From Herpetosiphonaceae bacterium (GTDB lineage Bacteria; Chloroflexota; Chloroflexia; Chloroflexales; Herpetosiphonaceae): 50,198 nt of DNA. A program made the translations under genes and the position numbers. Within the stretch, counting starts at the first letter, position 1. Every line of letters starts with the position of its first letter. Shown piece after piece: positions 4,212-17,762 of the stretch. Below the pieces are notes generated by a model. That model was not told the DNA's origin. It saw only the letters and a program-made list of their open reading frames with translations, and did no database searches. Location of the stretch: the NCBI GenBank assembly GCA_013538855.1, contig JABXJS010000080.1, positions 1 through 50,198 of the forward strand, in the 5' to 3' direction.

Positions 4212-5855
4212 TTAGCGCGCCGCCAGCATTACCGCCGCCTGCTCCAGCGTGCCATAGAGCAGTGACGGCAGCACGCCCAAGAAGAGCACCGCCAGCACGG
4301 TCAGCGTCATCACGAAGCGCGGGCCAAACGGGGCCTTGACGACCTCGCTGTTGGTCGGCTCCTCGATGTAGATCGCCTTGAGGATGCGCAGATAGTAGAA
4401 CAGGCTGATGATGGTGTTGAACACCGCAAAGATCACCAGCCACTTCGCGCCCTCTTGCCATGCCGCAATAAAGACGTAGAACTTGGCAAAGAAGCCCGAC
4501 AGCGGCGGAATACCCGCCAGCGACAGCACAAAAACCGTCAGCATCAGCGCTAGTCCTGGCGCGCGTCGGCCAACGCCGTTGAGGTCGCTCAGATCGGTGC
4601 CGCCGACCTTCTCTTCGATCAGCGCCAGCACGCCAAATGCGCCCAGGTTGGTTACGGTGTAGACCACGAGGTAGTAGATCAGCGCTGTGCCACTGTCGCG
4701 GCTGATGCCAACCAGTCCCAGCAGCAGGAAGCCCGCGTGGGCGATCGACGAGTAGGCCAGCATGCGCTTGGTGTTGGTCTGCGGCAGTGCCGCCAAGTTG
4801 CCCACCAGCATGGTCAGTGCGGCGATCACCGCCAGCACGCTGGTCCAGCCGCCAAAGCTCACCGCCGTGCCGCCTGCCGCCACCAGCGCCGCCGTGCCCG
4901 TGGTTGTCGGGTCGGCAAAGGCCGTGAGCAGCACTCGGTATAGCAGGAAGAAGCCGGCTGTTTTTGAGGCCGTCGAGATGAAGGCGGTGATCGTCGTCGG
5001 CGCGCCCTGGTAGACATCAGGCGACCAGGAGTGGAACGGCACCACCGAGACTTTGTAGGCCATGCCGGCGATCATCATCAGCAGGCCCAGGAAGAGCACC
5101 GCCTGGCCAGGGTTGCCCGCCTCGCTGAACGTCATCTGCACCGACGCGGCGATCTGCTGCAGCGTCGAGGGCACCACCGCCTCCGATGAGGCCATCGGCG
5201 CGGTCTGCATCGCCATGCCCAGCACAAGGCTCATCCCAAACAGCAGGATGGCCGACGAGAGCGCCCCGAACACGTAGTACTTCATCCCGGCCTCGGTGCT
5301 GGTCGCGCTACGGCGATAGTACCCGGCCAGAATGTACAGCGGAATACTGGTCAGCTCGATGCCCAGGTAGATCATGATCAGCTCGCCAGCGGCGGTCATC
5401 AGGATCATGCCCAGCGTCGAGAACAGTATCAGCGCATAGAACTCGCCAGGGCTGTTGTTGGGCTGTGTCGCCGTAGACAGCGCCACCGTAACAAAGGCCG
5501 CGCTAATAAACAGCAGCCGCCCGATATGCGTCAGCGGGTCGATCACGATCGCGCCGCCGAGAATCTGGTTGGTCTGGCCGCCTGTGCGCAGATTGCTAAT
5601 AAACGACCAGCTGGTAATGTCGATCTTGAAATTGAGCAGAAATGCCTGCAGCAGGCCGCTCTGGATGAGCGTCACGATAAATGCGAAGGCTAGACCGACC
5701 ATGGTCATGGTCGATGCTTCGCTGGTGCGCTCCTTGAAGCCCGCCGCACCAGTGCGCCAACGCCCGAACAGATCGCTGATGACCACCATAAAGGCGACGA
5801 GCACCAGCAGCAGCTCGGGGATGAGTCTGGATATATCACTTGTTTGAAAGCTCAC
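4212..5855 (-). CDS. nuoN: NADH-quinone oxidoreductase subunit N
   Basis: A 547-residue polytopic membrane protein of the complex I antiporter-like family and the last gene of the operon. Family features include the ELTSIPLYIL stretch with the conserved TM5 Glu, the following AGYYRRS and AGMKYYVFGAL segments, and the VVPFHSWSPDVYQGAP stretch typical of NuoN. NuoN forms one of the proton-pumping modules in the membrane arm. The start is a GTG at 5855 preceded by GGAGG at 7-nt spacing. The length is somewhat above the E. coli protein (485 aa), largely because of an extended loop between about residues 85 and 110. It is separated by 66 nt from the second nuoM copy and followed by the operon terminator. 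Confidence 0.95.
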   Translation of the reverse strand: MSFQTSDISRLIPELLLVLVAFMVVISDLFGRWRTGAAGFKERTSEASTMTMVGLAFAFIVTLIQSGLLQAFLLNFKIDITSWSFISNLRTGGQTNQILGGAIVIDPLTHIGRLLFISAAFVTVALSTATQPNNSPGEFYALILFSTLGMILMTAAGELIMIYLGIELTSIPLYILAGYYRRSATSTEAGMKYYVFGALSSAILLFGMSLVLGMAMQTAPMASSEAVVPSTLQQIAASVQMTFSEAGNPGQAVLFLGLLMMIAGMAYKVSVVPFHSWSPDVYQGAPTTITAFISTASKTAGFFLLYRVLLTAFADPTTTGTAALVAAGGTAVSFGGWTSVLAVIAALTMLVGNLAALPQTNTKRMLAYSSIAHAGFLLLGLVGISRDSGTALIYYLVVYTVTNLGAFGVLALIEEKVGGTDLSDLNGVGRRAPGLALMLTVFVLSLAGIPPLSGFFAKFYVFIAAWQEGAKWLVIFAVFNTIISLFYYLRILKAIYIEEPTNSEVVKAPFGPRFVMTLTVLAVLFLGVLPSLLYGTLEQAAVMLAAR

Positions 5856-5921: not shown

Positions 5922-7445
5922 TTACCGGCCCGCCAGCATTTGCCCAACATCTGCGATGCGCTGGGCGATTGGTTCTACACCAGTGCCGATCAGGTTCATA
6001 ATGATCGATGGGAAGAGGCCAACGCCGATGACCACGCAGGCCAGCACGGTGCCAGCAAACTTCTCCTGCCACGTCAGCGGCGGCAGCTCGTAGTAGTGCG
6101 GGTCTTTGACGTCGCCCATAAAGGCCATGTAGCCAACCCGCAGCACATATGCGGCGGTGATCGGGATCGACAGCGCGGCGATGGTGCCGATGACCGGGTT
6201 GAAGTTCATCACGCCAGTGAAGATCGTGAACTCGGCCATAAAGCCCGCCGTGCCCGGCATACCCATCGATGAAAGGCTCGCGATGATAAAGACCACAAAC
6301 GCAAACGGCATGATCTTCATCAGGCCGCCTAGCTCTGGCAGCTGGCGCGTATGCGTGCGCTCGTAGACCATGCGGCCGACCACGGCAAAGAAGAGCGCGG
6401 TCATCACGCCGTGGGCGAACATCTGCATCACTGCGCCGTTGAGCGCCGTGGTGTTCATCGCCGAGATGCCCAGCATCACCAGGCCCATGTGGCTCACCGA
6501 GGAGTAGCCGATCACGTACTTGAAGTCTTTTTGCACCATCGCGATGGTTGCGCCATAGACGACGTTCAGCAGCGTGATGCCGGCAATTGTCGGCAGCCAG
6601 TAGTGCGCGCCGTTGGGCATCAGCCACAGCGCCGCACGCAGCGCACCATAGGCACCCAGCTTCATCAGCACGCCTGCGTGCAGCATCGACACTGCGGTTG
6701 GCGCAGCCACGTGGCCGGTCGGCGACCACGTGTGGAACGGGAACATGCCCGCCAGCACTGCGAAGCCGACGAAGATCGGCAGGAAGAACACGATTTGGAA
6801 GGTGCGGCTGAACACGGTGTTCGAGAGCGCCACCATATCAAAGGTGCCGCCAACCACGTACACCGCGACCATGCCGACAATCACCATCGCCGAGCCAACC
6901 ATCAGGTACAGCGTCAGCTTCATCGCGCCGTACTCTTTGCGCGTCGAACCCCAGATGCCGATCAGCAGGTACATCGGCAGCACGGCCAGCTCGTAGAACA
7001 CAAAGAACAGGAACAGATCCAGCGAGATAAACACGCCATACACACCAACGACCAGCAGCAGCAGCAGCACAAAGTACTCTTTGGTGCGGTCCTCGATGTT
7101 CCACGAGATAAATGATCCGGTGAAGATCACAATCGCGTTGAGCACGATCAGCGGCAGGCTGATGCCATCTGCGCCGACAAAGTAGCTCATGCCCAACTGT
7201 GGCACCCAGTTGATCTTTTCGACAAACTGGAGCTTGGTTCCTAGGTAGCCAGGCGCGTTCGGATCGTAGGCGAAGAAGATCATCACCGCCAGCACCAGCG
7301 AGAACGCCGAGGTGCCGACTGCGATCCAGCGCATCGCGTTTTTATACTCGCGCGGCAGGAACATAATCAGCAGCATTCCCACCAGCGGTGAGAGCCAGAT
7401 CAGGCTCAGATAGGGAATGTTCGTTGGTAAATCCCACAAATGCAT
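5922..7445 (-). CDS. nuoM: NADH-quinone oxidoreductase subunit M, copy 2 (NuoN-proximal)
   Basis: A 507-residue antiporter-like subunit. It carries the TM5 glutamate (E152 in YELAVLPMY), followed by GIWGSTRKEYGAMK, and the HTWSPTGHVAAPTAVS and LMKLGAYG segments with the pumping Lys. Length and motifs fit NuoM rather than NuoL or NuoN. A second full-length NuoM-type gene lies just upstream (7476-9158), and the two differ enough (for example HTWSPTGH against HTWLPDAY) not to be a recent duplication. The ATG at 7445 has GGAG 8 nt upstream; a TTG at 7469 is in frame but less likely. Transcribed within the nuo operon. Both copies appear intact. Confidence 0.95.
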   Translation of the reverse strand: MHLWDLPTNIPYLSLIWLSPLVGMLLIMFLPREYKNAMRWIAVGTSAFSLVLAVMIFFAYDPNAPGYLGTKLQFVEKINWVPQLGMSYFVGADGISLPLIVLNAIVIFTGSFISWNIEDRTKEYFVLLLLLVVGVYGVFISLDLFLFFVFYELAVLPMYLLIGIWGSTRKEYGAMKLTLYLMVGSAMVIVGMVAVYVVGGTFDMVALSNTVFSRTFQIVFFLPIFVGFAVLAGMFPFHTWSPTGHVAAPTAVSMLHAGVLMKLGAYGALRAALWLMPNGAHYWLPTIAGITLLNVVYGATIAMVQKDFKYVIGYSSVSHMGLVMLGISAMNTTALNGAVMQMFAHGVMTALFFAVVGRMVYERTHTRQLPELGGLMKIMPFAFVVFIIASLSSMGMPGTAGFMAEFTIFTGVMNFNPVIGTIAALSIPITAAYVLRVGYMAFMGDVKDPHYYELPPLTWQEKFAGTVLACVVIGVGLFPSIIMNLIGTGVEPIAQRIADVGQMLAGR

Positions 7446-7475
7446 AGTTTCAACTCCACGGTCGCTCAAGAGCGA

Positions 7476-9158
7476 CTACTGAAAGACCTGCGCCAGCACT
7501 GTTGAGGCGGTGTTCGCTAGGTCCATCAGCGGTTTTGGATAGACCCCGAACACGAGCAGCAGCACCAGCAGCGGTACAGTGACGTTGAACTCCCAGCTGC
7601 CAACGCGCATGTCCGGTAGGTTGCTCCAGCGGGCGGTCGTCGGCCCGTAGAAGATCTTTTGGTACATGCGGATAAGCACCAGCGCGGTCACGATTAGGCC
7701 AAGCACGGCGATCGCCGTGATCAGTGGCTGCGTGCCCCAAGCGCCGCGGAAGATGAAAAACTCGCCGACGAAGCCCGCCAGGCCCGGCAGGCCAAGGTTG
7801 GCGAACATAGCCATACCCATCACGCCAGCAAACACCGGCATGACCTTGCGCAGCCCGCCAAACTGGTCAAGCTGGTAGGTGCCGGTGCGCTCAAAGAGCA
7901 TGCCGCCCAGGAAGAACAGGGCCGCTGTGCTGAAGCCGTGGGCGATCAGCTGCACTTGCACGCCGTTGATCGCCGAGGCGCGCACATCCACGCCGTTGCT
8001 CAGCGTGCCCACCGAGGCGGCGGCGGCGATGCCGAGCATCACATAGCCCATGTGGTTGATCGAGGCGTAGCCGATCAGCCGCTTGAGATGCGTCTGCGCT
8101 AGGCCTGCGTAGGCCCCAAACAGGATGCTGGCCAGCGCCAGCACCGCCAGCACTGCGGCGAAGTGCTGCATTTGCTGCGGGAACAGTGGCAGCAGCAGCC
8201 GCAGCATACCGTAGGCCCCCATCTTGGACATCACGCCCGACACAATCATCGAGCCAGAGGTCGGGGCCTGCGAGTAGGCGTCTGGCAGCCACGTGTGCAG
8301 CGGCCACACGGCCAGCTTCACCGCAAAGGCCACGAAGATACACCAGAAGATGATCGCCGCATAGGTGCCCGAACTGCCGCCAAGCAGGCTGGTCAGTCCG
8401 GTCCCTTGCACTGCGCCGTATACCAGCTCCTGCAGGTTCATGCCTGGCTGATACACCAGCGAGCCAAGCTTCGGCGCAACGAGGCTCGGGTCAACCGGCA
8501 GGCCCTGGCCGAGCCGCGCTAGTACCGCGAGGTCGAAGGTGCCTGTTGCCAGGTACAGGAACTCGAAGATCAGCAGCATGCCCACCGAGCCGGCCATCGT
8601 ATACACAAAGAACTTGAAGGCCGCATAGCGCCGGTCCTCGCCGCCCCAGTTGTTGATAATAAAGAACATCGGCACCAGGCTGAACTCCCAGAACAGGAAG
8701 AACAGCAGGAAGTTGAGCGATACGAAGTAGCCCAACATCGCCGACTCGAGCAGCAGCAGCAGGGCCATGTAGACCCGCGCGCGCTCTTCAACCCGAAACG
8801 CCGCCAGAATCGTCACCGGCGTCAGAATCACCGTCAGCAGCACCAGCGGGAAGTTGATCCCGTCCAGGCCAACGAAGTACTGCGCGTTCAGGAACTCGAT
8901 CCAGTTCAGTCGATCAACGTGCTGGATCAGCATCTGCGTGCCGTCGGTGGAGCGCGCCGCGTAGTCGAAGCCGCCGCTGAACCACAGGTACAGCGTCAGG
9001 CCCAGCGGCACCAAGCTCCAGGCGAACACACCCCACTTGACGGTGCGGTCATCTTTCGACGGCCAGATCAGCGCCAGCACCATGCCGATCAGCGGGCTGA
9101 GCGCGATGAGCGAGGTGATGCTCCAGTCGCTCGCGCTGAGAAAATCAGTTAACTGCAT
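7476..9158 (-). CDS. nuoM: NADH-quinone oxidoreductase subunit M, copy 1 (NuoL-proximal)
   Basis: A 560-residue NuoM-type antiporter-like subunit. The TM5 Glu is E158 in FWEFSLVPMFF, followed by INNWGGEDRRYAAFKF, and the TM7-8 region reads HTWLPDAYSQAPTSGS and MSKMGAYG. The motifs are those of a functional proton-channel module. It lies between nuoL (12-nt gap) and another nuoM. A fourth pumping subunit of this kind defines the so-called 2M complex I. The ATG at 9158 is 9 nt from AGGAG; a GTG at 9164 is only 3 nt from it and less plausible. No frameshift or lost key residue was seen. Confidence 0.94.
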   Translation of the reverse strand: MQLTDFLSASDWSITSLIALSPLIGMVLALIWPSKDDRTVKWGVFAWSLVPLGLTLYLWFSGGFDYAARSTDGTQMLIQHVDRLNWIEFLNAQYFVGLDGINFPLVLLTVILTPVTILAAFRVEERARVYMALLLLLESAMLGYFVSLNFLLFFLFWEFSLVPMFFIINNWGGEDRRYAAFKFFVYTMAGSVGMLLIFEFLYLATGTFDLAVLARLGQGLPVDPSLVAPKLGSLVYQPGMNLQELVYGAVQGTGLTSLLGGSSGTYAAIIFWCIFVAFAVKLAVWPLHTWLPDAYSQAPTSGSMIVSGVMSKMGAYGMLRLLLPLFPQQMQHFAAVLAVLALASILFGAYAGLAQTHLKRLIGYASINHMGYVMLGIAAAASVGTLSNGVDVRASAINGVQVQLIAHGFSTAALFFLGGMLFERTGTYQLDQFGGLRKVMPVFAGVMGMAMFANLGLPGLAGFVGEFFIFRGAWGTQPLITAIAVLGLIVTALVLIRMYQKIFYGPTTARWSNLPDMRVGSWEFNVTVPLLVLLLVFGVYPKPLMDLANTASTVLAQVFQ

Positions 9159-9170
9159 GCTCACTCGCTC

Positions 9171-11438
9171 CTAGAATGCATACAGGTACAGCAGGGCCAG
9201 CACGACCACACCTGCGAAGATGTAGAGGCCGTAGTCCTGAATCTTACCTGTCGCGGACTGCCGGACACCATCGCCGACCACCACTGTGCTCTCGCCCAGC
9301 GAGTCGGTGCCGGTGTTCAGGAAGAAGTCATCCAGAATGAAGTTCATCCGGCCGATGAACAGGGTCGCCTTGCCCACCAGATTGACTACGAAGTCAACCA
9401 GCGAGCGGTCGATCCAGTTCAGCAGCGCGCCTGCGCCATACGTTAGCGCGATAACGGTGCGCTGATATAGCTCGTCGATATAAAATTTGTTTTCCAGCAA
9501 AGTCCAGATCGGCCCCAGTGGCCCGGCCAGCGGGTCGCGGTCCATCGAGGTTTTGAAGGCGTTGCGGTAGACCGCATAGCCTAGCCCGATACCCGCAAGC
9601 GCAATCACTGTGGCGATGGCCGGAGCTGCAATATCAAATTCTGGCGCAGCCTGGAAGAGGAAGTGCGAGAGCCAGTGGATGCCGAACATGCCGGCATTGG
9701 CGAAGCCTGCCAGCAGCGCAAACAGCGCCAGCACCAGCAGCGGGCCGGTCATCGAGCGCGGCGACTCGTGTGGATCGTGCGCCTCGTGCGCGTGATGGTG
9801 GTCGTCGTGATGCTCGTCGTGGTGCGCGTGCGCATCGGTCGCCGGATCAGTCACGGCTACCGGCTCGCTGTGCTGGACATCGACCCGCCGCGGGTCGTAG
9901 CCGCGGAACTTGCCGAAGAACACCACCATAATCTGGCGCGTCATATAGAAGGCCGTCAGGAAGGCCGCGATGGTCAGCACAACGTACACCACCACGTGGC
10001 CCTCTTTGAGCGCGTCGGCCACAATTTCATCCTTCGACCAGAAGCCCGCGAAGGGAAAGATACCCGCTAGCGCCAGGTAGCCTGCCATGTAGGCGATGAA
10101 CGTGGTCGGCATAAACTTGCGGATCGCGCCCATGTTGCGGATGTCCTGCGCCTTGTCTGGGTCGTGCCCAACCGTGGCCTCCATGCCGTGGATGACCGAG
10201 CCGGAGCCAAGGAACAGCAGCGCTTTGAAGAAGGCGTGGGTCAGCAGGTGGAACAGCGCCGCCACCCACGCGCCGATGCCCAGCGAGGCCACCATAAAGC
10301 CCAGCTGCGACAGCGTGGAGAAGGCCAGGATGCGCTTGATGTCGTACTGCGCCACAGCGATCAGCGCCGCGAACAGCGCCGTGAAGGAGCCGATAAAGGC
10401 CACCACCGGCAAGATTTCGCTCACCTGGAAGATCGGGAACGTGCGCACCACTAGGAACACACCGGCCGCGACCATCGTCGCCGCGTGGATCAGCGCCGAC
10501 ACAGGCGTCGGGCCTTCCATGGCGTCCGGCAGCCAGACGTGCAGCGGGAACTGCGCCGACTTGCCCACGGTGCCCATGAACACCAGGATCGCAATCGCCG
10601 AGGCGATCGTCATCCCTGGAATAATGCTGTTGGTGGTCTTGATCGTCTCAAGAAAGGTGGCGTTGAAGATCTGCCCTGGCTCAGTCCCGAAGGTCAGCGA
10701 GCCAGATGCATTGTAGAGGTAGACCATCCCCAGCAGCATGCCCACGTCGCCGATGCGCGTGGTGATGAAGGCTTTCTTGGCCGCCTCGCGTGCCGAGGGC
10801 TTGAAGTACCAGAAGCCGATCAGCAAGAACGAGCACAAACCCATCAGCTCCCAGCAAATAAAGAAGAGGAGCAGATTGTCTGCGAGCGTCATGCCCAGCA
10901 TCGAGGCCGTGAACAGCGCGATGTACGAGAAGAAGCGCGACTGGCGCTGGTGGCCCGCCGGGTACTCGTCGTGGGCCATGTAGCCAACGGAGAAAATATG
11001 GATGCACAGCGCGGCCAGCGTGACCATCGCCAGCATCAGCGCCACTGGCGCGTCGAGGCGATAGCCTAGCTCAAACGTTGATGTGCCCGTTGGTGCCCAG
11101 GCCACCGCTTTGCGGTAGTAGTTACCGAAGTTCGCGATGCTTTCCTCGTGGCCACCTTCTGCTTCAGCGGCCAGCAGCGGCGCGTCGGAGCTGCCTGTCT
11201 GTGCCGAGGCCACCATGCTATGGGCGGCGCTCGCCTCAGTCGCTGGCGCGGTGGGGAAGCCCTCGGTGGCCGCCTGCGCCAGCACGCCCCACGCCAGCAC
11301 CGTGGCAACTGCCAGCATGGCGATGGCAGTTGTATAGGATGCCTGTCGTGAGCGCCCGATCGCTGGAACCAGCGTGATCAACGCAAAAGCTGCCAGCGGC
11401 AGCAGCGGGATCAGCCAGGCAAGATCAAAAAACGGCAT
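9171..11438 (-). CDS. nuoL: NADH-quinone oxidoreductase subunit L, enlarged
   Basis: A 755-residue antiporter-like subunit at the distal end of the membrane arm, far longer than E. coli NuoL (613). The core has LLFFICWELMGLCSF, the FPLHVWLPDAMEGPTPVS stretch and the following SALIHAATMVAAG. Extra length comes from three places: an Ala/Thr/Ser-rich insert after TM2 (about residues 57-105), a His/Asp-rich linker (about 534-560; 9763-9837) before the C-terminal helices, and about 25 extra residues (about 697-731) in the lateral amphipathic helix region before the last TM. The last fits an enzyme with an additional NuoM. The ATG at 11438 has a GGGGG about 9 nt upstream. Confidence 0.95.
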   Translation of the reverse strand: MPFFDLAWLIPLLPLAAFALITLVPAIGRSRQASYTTAIAMLAVATVLAWGVLAQAATEGFPTAPATEASAAHSMVASAQTGSSDAPLLAAEAEGGHEESIANFGNYYRKAVAWAPTGTSTFELGYRLDAPVALMLAMVTLAALCIHIFSVGYMAHDEYPAGHQRQSRFFSYIALFTASMLGMTLADNLLLFFICWELMGLCSFLLIGFWYFKPSAREAAKKAFITTRIGDVGMLLGMVYLYNASGSLTFGTEPGQIFNATFLETIKTTNSIIPGMTIASAIAILVFMGTVGKSAQFPLHVWLPDAMEGPTPVSALIHAATMVAAGVFLVVRTFPIFQVSEILPVVAFIGSFTALFAALIAVAQYDIKRILAFSTLSQLGFMVASLGIGAWVAALFHLLTHAFFKALLFLGSGSVIHGMEATVGHDPDKAQDIRNMGAIRKFMPTTFIAYMAGYLALAGIFPFAGFWSKDEIVADALKEGHVVVYVVLTIAAFLTAFYMTRQIMVVFFGKFRGYDPRRVDVQHSEPVAVTDPATDAHAHHDEHHDDHHHAHEAHDPHESPRSMTGPLLVLALFALLAGFANAGMFGIHWLSHFLFQAAPEFDIAAPAIATVIALAGIGLGYAVYRNAFKTSMDRDPLAGPLGPIWTLLENKFYIDELYQRTVIALTYGAGALLNWIDRSLVDFVVNLVGKATLFIGRMNFILDDFFLNTGTDSLGESTVVVGDGVRQSATGKIQDYGLYIFAGVVVLALLYLYAF

Positions 11439-11545: not shown

Positions 11546-11863
11546 TCATCCTTTGAGTGTGTCAGCTTCGTCTGCATTGATGGTCTGGCGGGCGCGATAG
11601 ATCGCGATAACCATGGCCAGACCGACCGCCACCTCAGCGGCGGCAACTGCAATCGTAAAGACGGTGAACGTCAAGCCTGCGGTGCCCATCGGCCGTAGAT
11701 AGCGCCAAAAGGCCACCAAATTGATATTGACAGAGTTGAGCATCAGCTCGATCCCCATCAGAATGCCCACCGTGTTGCGCCGTGATAGTGCCCCAAACAG
11801 GCCGATACAAAACAGCCCTGCGGCTAGCGTCAACACCCAGGCAATTGGGATTGTTCCAACCAT
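11546..11863 (-). CDS. nuoK: NADH-quinone oxidoreductase subunit K
   Basis: A 105-residue three-helix membrane subunit of complex I, at the normal family length. The two glutamates expected in TM2 and TM3 are visible in [18 protein letters not shown] and [10 protein letters not shown]. NuoK (Nqo11) contributes to the proton channel near NuoJ and NuoN. The reading frame extends upstream to 11941, but the ATG at 11863 is right: it begins MVGTIPIAW and has AGGAGG 6 nt upstream, overlapping the nuoJ stop. The gene is followed by a structured spacer before nuoL. Confidence 0.96.
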
Positions 11864-11873
11864 GACATTCCTC

Positions 11874-12557
11874 CTACACGGCCTGTTCCGCATCGACGGG
11901 AACAACCGCGCCTTCTTCGTCGTGCGGCTCGACAATCCCACGTTTGCGCAAGGCCAGCTCCTCCGCCAGTGTCAGCACTCGGCGGCGGCGCGTGCGTTCT
12001 TCAAAGGCGATCAAGATCGCGCCGATCAGCGCGGCGGTCAGCAGCAGCGAAACAACCTCGAACGGCAGCAGGTACTCGCCCATCAGCGCGGCTCCAAGCT
12101 CTTCGGTGCCCGCGACCGGGATGATTTCCGGCCGTGTGCCGCCGTTGGCCTCGGTCGCCTGCTGCACGAGGATGGCCTGCGCGTCGCTGGCCGTTTTATC
12201 CCAGCTGGAGCCTTGTTGCCAAACTGTCGGCACGATAACGCCGCCGAACAGCGCGGCGGCGGTAAGCATCGCTACCCACCAGCGGCTGTGCAGCTGGCGC
12301 GTGCCGGTGCCTGTGATCTGGCGCGTCAGCATGATCGCGAACAGCACCAAAATCGAAACCGCGCCTGCATAGACGAGCACCTGCACAATCGCCAGGAACT
12401 CGGCCTCCATGAGCATATACAGCGCGGCCACACCCACAAATGTCGAGATCAGCCAAAGTGCTGCGTGAATAATATTCTTGACGGTGACGACCATTATACC
12501 TGACCCCAGCGTGAGCGCTGACAGTAGGAAGAAGATCGTCAGAACTACATAATTCAT
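11874..12557 (-). CDS. nuoJ: NADH-quinone oxidoreductase subunit J
   Basis: A 227-residue membrane subunit (Nqo10/ND6 type). The N-terminal helices include the [12 protein letters not shown] and [11 protein letters not shown] segments and the [16 protein letters not shown] stretch, which contains the conserved TM3 glycine/alanine pi-bulge region. After the fourth helix there is a hydrophilic loop rich in Gln/Asp/Thr, then a final helix and a charged Arg-rich cytoplasmic tail (FEERTRRRR). The tail makes it longer than the E. coli protein (184 aa). The ATG at 12557 follows a GGAAGGAACC stretch. nuoK starts 10 nt after the stop. A hairpin (12588-12607) separates it from nuoH. Confidence 0.94.
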
Positions 12558-12613: not shown

Positions 12614-13837
12614 TTAGCCTGCTAGGCCCAGAGCGATTTCTTCTTCGGTCAGGTCGGACGGCTGTCGTCGATTGATGCGCATCACTGCGTAGACGGCCAG
12701 CAAGTTGATGATCAGCGTTACAACAATCGCCACGCCGTAGCGCAGATAGTTGTCGCTGGCTGGCTCACCAAACCAGTCGGTAAAGATTTGTGCCTGCGGC
12801 CCCCAGCGCGTGATCGCCACCCAGATCGCGGTGCTGAATACGTTGACCAGCACGATCGGCAGCAAAAACTTCCAGGCAAAGCCCATCAGCTGGTCCACAC
12901 GCAAACGTGGCACCGTGCCGCGGATAAGCACCATCAGGAAGAATAGCGCCAGCGCCTTGATGAAGAAGTACACCAGCGAGAGCAGCCCGCCAAGCACCGT
13001 GCCTAGCGCTGTGACGCCCGGCCCGTTGCCACCGCCCAAGAACAGCGACGCCATAATGAAGCACAGCGCTAAGTTGGTCATGTAGTTCGACAGGTAGAAC
13101 ACCGCGAACTTCATGCCGCCGTACTCCGTTAGGTAGCCGGCCACGATCTCTGAGTCTGCTTCGGGAATATCGAAGGGCGTGCGCTCACCCTCCGCCAGCG
13201 CGGCGATGAAGAAGGTGATAAACGCCGTTAAGCCAACGGGGCTGAAAACATACCAGCCAAAGCCGTACCAGTCACCTTGGCGCGTCACGATGTCCGTCAG
13301 CGAGAGCGAGCCGGAGAGCAGGATGATCGGCAGCAGCGCCATTAGCAGCGGGATTTCGTAGCTCACCATCTGGGCTACGCCACGCATACCGCCGAGCAGC
13401 GCAAACTTGTTGTTCGATCCCCAGCCGGCCATCAGCATGCCCACGGTGTGTAGGCCGGTTACGGCGAAGATAAACAGCACGCCCACGCGTAGCGACGATG
13501 GGAACAGATTGCCCCACGGGATCACAGCGAAGGCCAGCACGGTTGCGCCAAGCATCACCACCGGCGCGAGGAAGTGCACCACGCGATCAGCATCAAGCGG
13601 CGTGATGTCCTCCTTCGTCATGGTCTTGATCGCCTCCGAAACCGGCTGCAATAGGCCCTGGGGGCCGACGCGGTTAGGGCCGCGGCGGTCTTGCATGTAG
13701 GCGATTGCGCGGCGCTCGTACCAGGTGAGGAACATCATGCCCAGCGAGCCACCGACCAGAATCAGTGTGACTTTGATGATGCTGACAAGAACTAGACCTA
13801 TCCATGCGTCTACTGCGATAACAGGCCAATACGTCAT
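12614..13837 (-). CDS. nuoH: NADH-quinone oxidoreductase subunit H
   Basis: A 407-residue membrane subunit (Nqo8/ND1) that forms the quinone-entry chamber and connects the peripheral and membrane arms. Signature stretches: TWYERRAIAYMQDRRGPNRVG near the N-terminus; the acidic quinone-channel loop with EGERTPFDIPEADSE and GYLTEYGGMKF; and the VLIRGTVPRLRVDQLMGFAWK segment near the C-terminus. All are conserved, so the protein should be functional. The ATG at 13837 lies 3 nt after the nuoI stop. Gene order I then H is inverted relative to the common H-I order. Confidence 0.96.
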   Translation of the reverse strand: MTYWPVIAVDAWIGLVLVSIIKVTLILVGGSLGMMFLTWYERRAIAYMQDRRGPNRVGPQGLLQPVSEAIKTMTKEDITPLDADRVVHFLAPVVMLGATVLAFAVIPWGNLFPSSLRVGVLFIFAVTGLHTVGMLMAGWGSNNKFALLGGMRGVAQMVSYEIPLLMALLPIILLSGSLSLTDIVTRQGDWYGFGWYVFSPVGLTAFITFFIAALAEGERTPFDIPEADSEIVAGYLTEYGGMKFAVFYLSNYMTNLALCFIMASLFLGGGNGPGVTALGTVLGGLLSLVYFFIKALALFFLMVLIRGTVPRLRVDQLMGFAWKFLLPIVLVNVFSTAIWVAITRWGPQAQIFTDWFGEPASDNYLRYGVAIVVTLIINLLAVYAVMRINRRQPSDLTEEEIALGLAG

Positions 13838-13840
13838 TGC

Positions 13841-14860
13841 TTATTCCCCCTGCTTCGCCTTGTTGGCTTCACGAATCGCCATCAAGCGAGCCAGCTTGTC
13901 TTCGGACATATTTTTGCCTGGAGCGGCCACAGGGCCAGTCGCCTTGCTGGCGGCTGAGCCGGAGGTCGCCTGATCGCTCGGGGCCACCTGACCAGCGGCG
14001 TTGGTCGCCACATCGGCCTCGATGGCATGCGCGCCGCTCTCTGGTGGGCCGCCGCGCTTGCCTGTGTTGGCCTCGCGAATCGCCATCAGCCGCGCCAGCT
14101 TGTCCTCGGACATACTGGTGCCAACTTTGGCGATGGGGCCGGTGTACTGCTTGCGGCCTGCGGCTCCAGCTGCTGGTGTAGCTGCCTTTGGCGCAGCGGC
14201 GCTAGACTTGCCGGCGATCTTCTGGCCATGATCGACGCCAATGTTGCCAGGACGGCGCTTGATGTTATTTTGCAGCTTCTTCAGCGCTGCGTCGCGCACC
14301 TCGGCCCACATCGTTGGCGCGATCGCCTCATAGTAGGAGACTGGGCGCAGCAGGTGGGTGTAGTGCACATCGAGCGCTGGATGATCAGCCGTCGATAGCT
14401 CGAAGTCGTGATCCATCTTGATCGCATCGAACGGGCAGACCTCCGCGCAGTAGCCGCACGACATGCAGGTGTCGTATTCAAGCACGAACTCGGCGGCGGC
14501 TGGAACCGGTTTGCCGGTCTCGGGATGCTTGGCCTGGGTGATGTGAATCACCTGTGGCGGACAGACGCGCTCGCACTGGAAGCACGAGGTGCACAGCTCT
14601 TGGCCGGTCGCGTCATCATAGAGCAGGATCGGCATGTTGCGGTAGGCCTCGGCGAGCACCAGGCGCTCCTCAGGGTACTGGACGTTAAATTGCCCTTCGG
14701 TGTCGTCGCGCTCGGTGTTGGCCTTGCCAAACAGCGCCTTGCGAAACTTCCGGAACACAATGTCTAGCCCTTTGAGGGTGCCCTGTCCGGCGTGAATATT
14801 GTTATCGTGGCGATTGACTTCCACGATGTTGACGGTGCCTTTGCGTGTGCTCAAGGTCAT
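13841..14860 (-). CDS. nuoI: NADH-quinone oxidoreductase subunit I with repeated C-terminal tail
   Basis: A 339-residue protein, roughly twice the usual NuoI. The ferredoxin core has two [4Fe-4S] motifs, Cys90/93/96/100 and Cys132/135/138/142, for clusters N6a and N6b that pass electrons to NuoB. The N-terminal 60 residues replace the usual amphipathic helix region. After about residue 205 comes an Ala/Pro/Lys-rich extension that contains the same 16 residues twice, [16 protein letters not shown] at 250-265 and 318-333, joined by a low-complexity linker. The tail is not part of the family and its role is unknown. The start overlaps the nuoD stop as ATGA. Confidence 0.93.
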
Positions 14861-17284: not shown

Positions 17285-17641
17285 TTAGATCCACTCCAGC
17301 GCGCCTTTCTTCCATGCGTAGACTAGGCCTACGGTCAAGATCATGAGGAAGATCCCCATTTCAATCAAGGCAAAAAGACCTAGCTGCCCATACGCAACCG
17401 CCCAGGGATACAGAAATACAGTTTCAATATCGAAGATCACGAAGGCGAGGGCATATAGGTAGTACTGAACTTTAAATTGCACCCAGATTTCGCCAATTGC
17501 TTCGAGGCCACACTCATAGGTTGAAAGTTTGACTTCTGAAGGGCGGTTGGGGCGAATGATTGCCGAGATAATGAGCGGCAATAGGGGAAAGGTGATCGCT
17601 GCTACTGTGAAGATCCCAATGAATGCATAGGTTGAAAGCAT
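17285..17641 (-). CDS. nuoA: NADH-quinone oxidoreductase subunit A
   Basis: A 118-residue, three-helix membrane subunit (Nqo7/ND3) and the first gene of the operon. It has the family stretches [24 protein letters not shown] and [12 protein letters not shown]; the Cys in YECG is the conserved loop cysteine. The frame extends upstream to 17716, but the ATG at 17641, beginning MLSTYAF, has AGGAGA 7 nt before it and matches the family N-terminus. The promoter candidate at 17763-17791 gives a leader of about 110 nt. Confidence 0.96.
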
Positions 17642-17762
17642 GTGTCTTTCTCCTGCATAAACAGCGCCCTTGCTGCGCTGCATGACACACATAAACAGCG
17701 AGATGGAGTAATCCACCCTCGCTGAATTTAAATAGTGTGACTACCATGTGCGGCTTTTGAGA

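What the first reader, a model, noticed from the sequence alone, without database searches (positions are those of the whole stretch)
5922..9158. Two full-length NuoM genes in one complex I operon
Two adjacent nuoM genes (507 and 560 aa) keep the TM5 Glu and the Lys-containing TM7-8 region and differ from each other enough not to be a recent duplicate. With NuoL and NuoN they give four antiporter-like subunits. Such 2M complex I cassettes have been described in several phyla and were proposed to pump a fifth proton per cycle. The operon here suggests the same.
Basis: partly seen in the sequence, partly recalled or inferred. Interest (0 to 1): 0.7.

Follow-up and report, generated by a model that had tools for sequence, protein, structure and literature searches.

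The report
Four-module complex I with lysine-less NuoM
This Chloroflexota respiratory complex I has two NuoM proton-pump modules, which is already known for the group, but one of them uniformly lacks the lysine described as absolutely conserved and essential for pumping, so the idea that the extra module pumps a fifth proton cannot be read from the genes and needs a direct test.

Summary
Two full-length nuoM genes (5922-7445 and 7476-9164, minus strand) lie between nuoL and nuoN in a 12-gene complex I operon without nuoEFG. They are 36% identical, and neither is Mrp- or FHL-type. NuoL carries the 26-residue lateral-helix insert expected of a four-module arm. This "2M complex I" is already described for Chloroflexi (Chadwick 2018, as cited in PMC7117926 and PMC8004040), so the operon itself is ordinary. 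M1 (507 aa) has Leu231 where E. coli NuoM has the TM7 lysine K234. In 26 Chloroflexota 2M cassettes M1 has Leu (25) or Thr (1), while every M2, NuoL, NuoN and conventional single NuoM aligned keeps Lys. The two nuoM genes are not a tandem duplicate (AU p=0.0001). M1 belongs to an old "Leu-type" NuoM subfamily that is also the only NuoM in some ordinary complexes of other phyla, usually with a TM8 histidine. M1 is under strong purifying selection, so it is used. Best reading: a real four-module complex I whose fourth module has a rewired TM5-TM7 gate. A fifth proton is not supported by the residues, though not excluded. I found no report of this, but the key paper was not readable here.

The parts
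17285..17716 (-). nuoA
   Evidence: ORF; Pfam PF00507, 132.7 bits
16492..17235 (-). nuoB
   Evidence: NCBIfam NuoB family models, e.g. NF011394, 436 bits
15969..16508 (-). nuoC (approximate 5' end)
   Evidence: Pfam PF00329, 135.5 bits
14857..15969 (-). nuoD
   Evidence: NCBIfam NuoD models
13841..14860 (-). nuoI with a long C-terminal tail holding two copies of [16 protein letters not shown]
   Evidence: NCBIfam/Pfam 4Fe-4S, NuoI; tail compared
12614..13837 (-). nuoH
   Evidence: NCBIfam NuoH
11874..12557 (-). nuoJ
   Evidence: NCBIfam NuoJ
11546..11941 (-). nuoK
   Evidence: NCBIfam NuoK
9171..11438 (-). nuoL, 755 aa, long lateral helix
   Evidence: NCBIfam NuoL 596 bits; lateral-helix segment 82 residues against 57 in the genome's own canonical NuoL
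9270..9347 (-). 26-residue insert in the NuoL lateral helix (about residues 698-723, MNFILDDFFLNTGTDSLGESTVVVGD)
   Evidence: alignment with E. coli and own canonical NuoL; lengthened segment in all 2M loci
7476..9164 (-). nuoM2: Lys-type NuoM with the full residue set (E160, K283, K314, E468)
5922..7445 (-). nuoM1: Leu-type NuoM without the TM7 lysine
6753..6755 (-). codon of M1 Leu231, aligned with E. coli NuoM Lys234 (TM7)
   Evidence: Leu (25) or Thr (1) in 26 2M M1
6678..6680 (-). codon of M1 His256 (TM8), aligned with E. coli NuoM Leu259 and with the NuoL TM8 histidine
4212..5855 (-). nuoN (keeps its TM7 Lys)
   Evidence: NCBIfam NuoN 379 bits; residues

Best explanation
The operon encodes a four-module (2M) complex I of the Chloroflexota kind: A-B-C-D-I-H-J-K-L-M2-M1-N, without its own NADH-input subunits EFG. 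The lateral helix of NuoL is lengthened by about one antiporter-like module so that it can span L, M2, M1 and N (shown by sequence; assembly inferred). M2 is a conventional proton-pump module. M1 comes from a separate, old NuoM subfamily that has leucine in place of the TM7 lysine and usually has a histidine in TM8. It keeps the TM5 Glu, the TM8 Lys, the conserved histidines of the central axis and the TM12 Glu. M1 therefore most likely still sits in the arm and carries protons or charge along the central axis, but with a rewired Glu(TM5)-Lys(TM7) gate. It should not be assumed to add a fifth pumped proton by the canonical mechanism.
For: Gene order L-M2-M1-N is conserved in every order-level relative whose flanks were fetched. 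The lateral-helix segment is 81-88 residues in all 74 measurable 2M NuoL, 56-57 in all 21 Leu-type single-NuoM complexes, 53-57 in 11 of 15 Lys-type single-NuoM complexes, and 57 in the same genome's canonical NuoL. AF2 predicts one helix 652-726 there. TM7 residue: M1 Leu 25/26, Thr 1/26; M2 Lys 26/26; NuoL and NuoN Lys wherever aligned. All 80 M1-type genes found in a one-genome-per-species collection lack it (79 Leu, 1 Ile). Tree: M1 falls in a Leu-type clade of 41 (98*), of which 17 are the only NuoM of their complex; M2 falls in a clade of 24 (99*) inside Lys-type NuoM. M1 and M2 as sisters: p-AU 0.0001. M1 has omega 0.016-0.063 among close relatives, as low as or lower than L, M2 and N in most pairs. 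M1 is predicted to fold as NuoM (pLDDT 89, TM-score about 0.9 to complex I NuoM). Mutating K234 in E. coli NuoM gives loss of function (PMC3046159); the lysine is called absolutely conserved and essential in PMC7419157.
Against: I could read no biochemistry on any 2M complex. That M1 sits between M2 and N is inferred from gene order. Leu-type NuoM serves as the only NuoM in other complexes, so the subfamily may pump well with another residue doing the job. In some pumping models (exit through NuoL only) module count does not set stoichiometry at all (PMC7419157).
Confidence: 0.6

Rival explanations
1. As proposed by the first reader and by Chadwick et al. (as cited): M1 is a fully working fourth pump and the complex moves five protons per cycle; the TM7 lysine is simply not needed in Leu-type NuoM because the TM8 histidine or the TM12 residue of the neighbour replaces it.
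For: The rest of the M1 proton path is invariant or nearly so (K262, H238, H245, H319, H345, E405). A TM8 His accompanies the Leu in 24/26 2M M1 and in all 17 single-NuoM Leu types in the tree, at the position where NuoL has its own histidine. Strong purifying selection.
Against: Loss of the TM7 Lys abolishes function in E. coli NuoM (PMC3046159). The TM8 His is not universal (Leu in 9 of 24 2M M1 in the tree). In a Thermoflexus-related pair of M1 (L053, L128) the TM8 lysine is lost as well.
Confidence: 0.25
2. M1 is a non-pumping spacer that lengthens the arm and has only a structural function.
For: Uniform loss of the TM7 lysine; further loss of the TM8 Lys in L053 and L128; HycC of E. coli formate hydrogenlyase has Leu at the same site, and mutating its other path residues had no effect on activity (PMC5061711).
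Against: The other proton-path residues stay conserved across phyla, which a spacer would not need; very low omega.
Confidence: 0.12
3. M1 and M2 are alternative isoforms that exchange in an ordinary three-module complex.
For: Single-M complexes of either type exist elsewhere; four loci keep a long lateral helix with only one NuoM.
Against: The lateral-helix insert accompanies the L-M2-M1-N order in 74/74 loci; the two genes are neighbours in a fixed order across Chloroflexota and in MAGs of other phyla.
Confidence: 0.03

Closest known systems
2M complex I of Chloroflexi (Chadwick et al. 2018, as reported in PMC7117926 and PMC8004040; Chloroflexus aggregans Cagg_1620-1631; Cfl. aurantiacus Caur_1976-1987 in PMC3150298)
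   Same: 12-gene operon without nuoEFG, two nuoM between nuoL and nuoN, a second canonical complex I in the same genome.
   Different: Same system, here in another genus. What I add is that one NuoM belongs to a separate subfamily lacking the TM7 lysine; none of the readable papers mentions it.
Nitrospira 2M complex I and Manganitrophaceae Complex_I_3 (PMC9040806, PMC6606698)
   Same: Extra NuoM and about 26-residue lateral-helix insert in the distal subunit.
   Different: Reported as convergent origins; I could not reach their NuoM sequences, so whether they use a Leu-type module is untested.
HycC of E. coli formate hydrogenlyase (PMC5061711)
   Same: Leu at the position of NuoM Lys234.
   Different: M1 is a true NuoM by profile and tree and sits in a complex I operon.

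Membership tests
2M complex I | Two NuoM genes between nuoL and nuoN in one complex I operon | tested here: met
2M complex I | About 26-residue insert in the NuoL lateral helix | tested here: met
   82 residues against 57 (own canonical) and 53 (E. coli)
2M complex I | Both copies are NuoM and not Mrp or hydrogenase antiporters | tested here: met
   NCBIfam scores, trees, fold
2M complex I | Both NuoM carry the full set of pumping residues (a condition of the fifth-proton inference, not of the gene arrangement) | tested here: not met
   M1 lacks the TM7 Lys: Leu231 here, non-Lys in 26/26 2M M1
2M complex I | Both NuoM are in one assembled complex | not testable with these tools
   needs proteomics or structure
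2M complex I | Five protons per reaction cycle | not testable with these tools
   needs reconstituted pumping measurement
Formate hydrogenlyase / Mrp antiporter subunit | Groups with HycC, HyfB or MrpA/D rather than NuoM | tested here: not met
   M1 465 bits to NDH_I_M against 169 bits to the best Mrp subunit D and 148 bits to hydrogenase 4 subunit B

The most novel reading that the evidence does not exclude
Bacteria have two ancient NuoM subfamilies, one with the TM7 lysine and one with Leu plus usually a TM8 histidine. Leu-type NuoM drives working complexes by a different gate, and the Chloroflexota-type 2M complex arose by joining one module of each type rather than by duplication. This would show that the 'absolutely conserved' lysine is dispensable in nature.
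Probability: 0.5. Interest if true: 0.75.

Novelty: new variant of a known kind. Interest (0 to 1): 0.6.

Why it matters
How complex I couples electron transfer to four protons, and which residues gate each module, is still argued. The TM5 Glu-TM7 Lys pair is central to the leading models. A natural NuoM subfamily without the lysine, both as the only NuoM and as the fourth module of 2M complexes, is a ready experiment on that question. It also means the repeated 'fifth proton' of 2M complexes should not be used in energy budgets of Chloroflexota until measured.

Tried and rejected
Tandem duplication of one nuoM: rejected (AU p=0.0001). The AU test on the full 89-row set did not finish, so a 32-row set was used. 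Mrp or FHL origin of one copy: rejected. Decayed gene: rejected (omega 0.016-0.063). Isoform exchange: unlikely because of the lateral-helix insert. Reading Chadwick 2018: not held under DOI or PMC id. Nitrospira 2M NuoM sequences: not among the 80 loci of the single genome-contig scan. Search for earlier notice of the lysine loss: nothing. A distant E. coli DNA search for nuoD gave no match; the K-12 operon was fetched by accession instead.

Full report
What is there. The minus strand from 17716 to 4212 holds nuoA-B-C-D-I-H-J-K-L-M2-M1-N, twelve genes without nuoE, F or G. M2 (7476-9164) and M1 (5922-7445) both match the NuoM profile NDH_I_M far above its cut-off (461 and 465 bits against 263.8) and are 36% identical. 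The same genome has a second, canonical complex I in two pieces: B, C, D and H are found on contig C30, with the genome's only NuoF, and I-J-K-L-M-N on C20.

Known system. A 12-gene nuo cluster with an additional nuoM is reported for Chloroflexus aggregans (PMC8004040) and, as 'duplicated nuoM', for Cfl. aurantiacus (PMC3150298). PMC7117926 describes the Chloroflexi 2M cassettes and cites Chadwick et al. 2018 for an extra proton per cycle; the original was not readable. The order-level relatives whose flanks were fetched keep L-M2-M1-N, and the upstream genes where the contig allows, in this order. M2 relatives (55-76% identity) are present in all but one of the order-level genomes sampled (G125). 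So the arrangement is ordinary for this lineage.

Lateral helix. The mark of a four-module arm is a longer NuoL lateral helix. Between the FYxDxxY motif and the last TM the window has 82 residues, the genome's own canonical NuoL 57, and E. coli 53. All 74 measurable 2M loci have 81-88. All 21 single-NuoM Leu-type loci have 56-57. Of 15 Lys-type loci, 11 have 53-57, and four (L043, L055, L060, L061) have 82-87 with a single NuoM. In G079 and G009, which hold two of these four, no further NuoM lies next to it. Their single NuoM branches beside the M2 clade, as if M1 was lost or not yet gained. AlphaFold2 draws residues 652-726 as one helix, at low confidence towards its end.

The residue that is missing. 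Aligned to E. coli, M2 keeps E160 (E144), K283 (K234), K314 (K265) and E468 (E407). M1 keeps E152, K262 and E405 but has Leu231 at K234. Over 26 cassettes M1 has Leu in 25 and Thr in 1, while M2 has Lys in 26/26, and NuoL, NuoN and every Lys-type single NuoM have Lys. The loss goes with other M1-only changes near the gate: W143 to Tyr, A230 to Gly, A247 to Gly, and L259 to His in TM8 in 24/26. In NuoL the homologous column is also His, and PMC13324432 names NuoL H254 in a proton input path; that these are the same residue is my alignment. In two related M1 (L053; L128, Thermoflexus) the TM8 lysine is gone too.

Where M1 comes from. A scan of one genome per species with the M1 profile gave 80 loci, all without Lys at this site: 79 Leu, 1 Ile. 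They fall in two contexts. One is the L-M2-M1-N cassette with the long lateral helix, in Chloroflexota and in a few MAGs named Verrucomicrobia and Deltaproteobacteria. The other is L-M-N with a normal helix and the Leu-type as the only NuoM, in MAGs named Syntrophobacterales, Deltaproteobacteria, Bdellovibrio, Rokuibacteriota, Myxococcales, Firmicutes, Hydrogenedentes and some Chloroflexi. The ten such genomes checked hold more antiporter-like genes than one cassette needs, so most have other complexes as well. With the two trait columns masked, the tree puts all Leu-type NuoM in one clade (41 rows, 98*), M2 in another (24 rows, 99*) inside the Lys-type, and M1 of 2M as one group with weak support (67; 91/85 in the smaller tree). 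M1 and M2 as sisters are rejected: log-likelihood 215 lower, p-AU 0.00012. So the 2M arm joins two old kinds of NuoM; it was not made by doubling one gene in place.

Is M1 used? Among close relatives M1 has omega 0.016-0.063, as low as or lower than its neighbours in most comparisons. It is predicted to fold as NuoM (mean pLDDT 89; TM-score about 0.9 to complex I NuoM/ND4, about 30% identity). The solved NuoM chains it matched were all only about 30% identical.

Mechanism. In E. coli, mutation of K234 in NuoM gives loss of function (PMC3046159), and the Lys of TM7 is described as absolutely conserved, essential, and part of the coupling point with TM5 Glu and the TM12 residue of the neighbour (PMC7419157). 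The Leu-type breaks that rule in nature. The other path residues of M1 are conserved across phyla, so a dead spacer is unlikely. A canonical independent pump is not supported either. I commit to a fourth module that still conducts protons or charge along the axis, with its gate changed, perhaps with the TM8 histidine taking part. Shown: genes, order, lateral-helix insert, residue loss, two subfamilies, purifying selection. Inferred: assembly of four modules, their order, the rewired gate. Unknown: stoichiometry.

Limits. The 80 loci were found by M1-type peptides, so 80/80 describes the subfamily and is not an unbiased rate; the 26 cassettes were chosen by their M2, which is free of that bias. 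A few contigs occur in both sets. Organism names are those in record titles. That the window is a Herpetosiphonaceae genome is my inference from genome sizes of its relatives and was not shown by a tool. That no earlier paper reports the lysine loss rests on a partial library.

Noticed in passing
13841-14860: NuoI of the 2M operon has a long C-terminal tail with two copies of [16 protein letters not shown] in an Ala/Pro/Gly linker. NuoI of the other Chloroflexales 2M operons examined carries about one to five copies of a related motif (form DKAARLAAIRAANAAK); the canonical NuoI of the same genome lacks it. Possibly a docking tail for an electron donor, since the operon has no EFG.
   Followed up: partly
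9786-9878: NuoL has a His/Asp-rich loop (AHAHHDEHHDDHHHAHEAHDPHE) before its last membrane helices; AF2 leaves it unstructured.
   Followed up: no
L043, L055, L060, L061: Four loci of the phylum have the long 2M-type lateral helix but only one (Lys-type) NuoM next to it; candidates for loss of M1 or for the state before it was gained.
   Followed up: partly
L010:980-6149 (own genome, contig C126): A NuoD-like protein and a NuoM-like protein lacking both the TM5 Glu and the TM7 Lys, with two further ORFs between them without Pfam match: looks like an energy-converting-hydrogenase-related complex.
   Followed up: partly
L053 and L128: In these 2M cassettes M1 has lost the TM8 lysine as well as the TM7 lysine, suggesting further decay of pumping residues in that branch.
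   Followed up: partly
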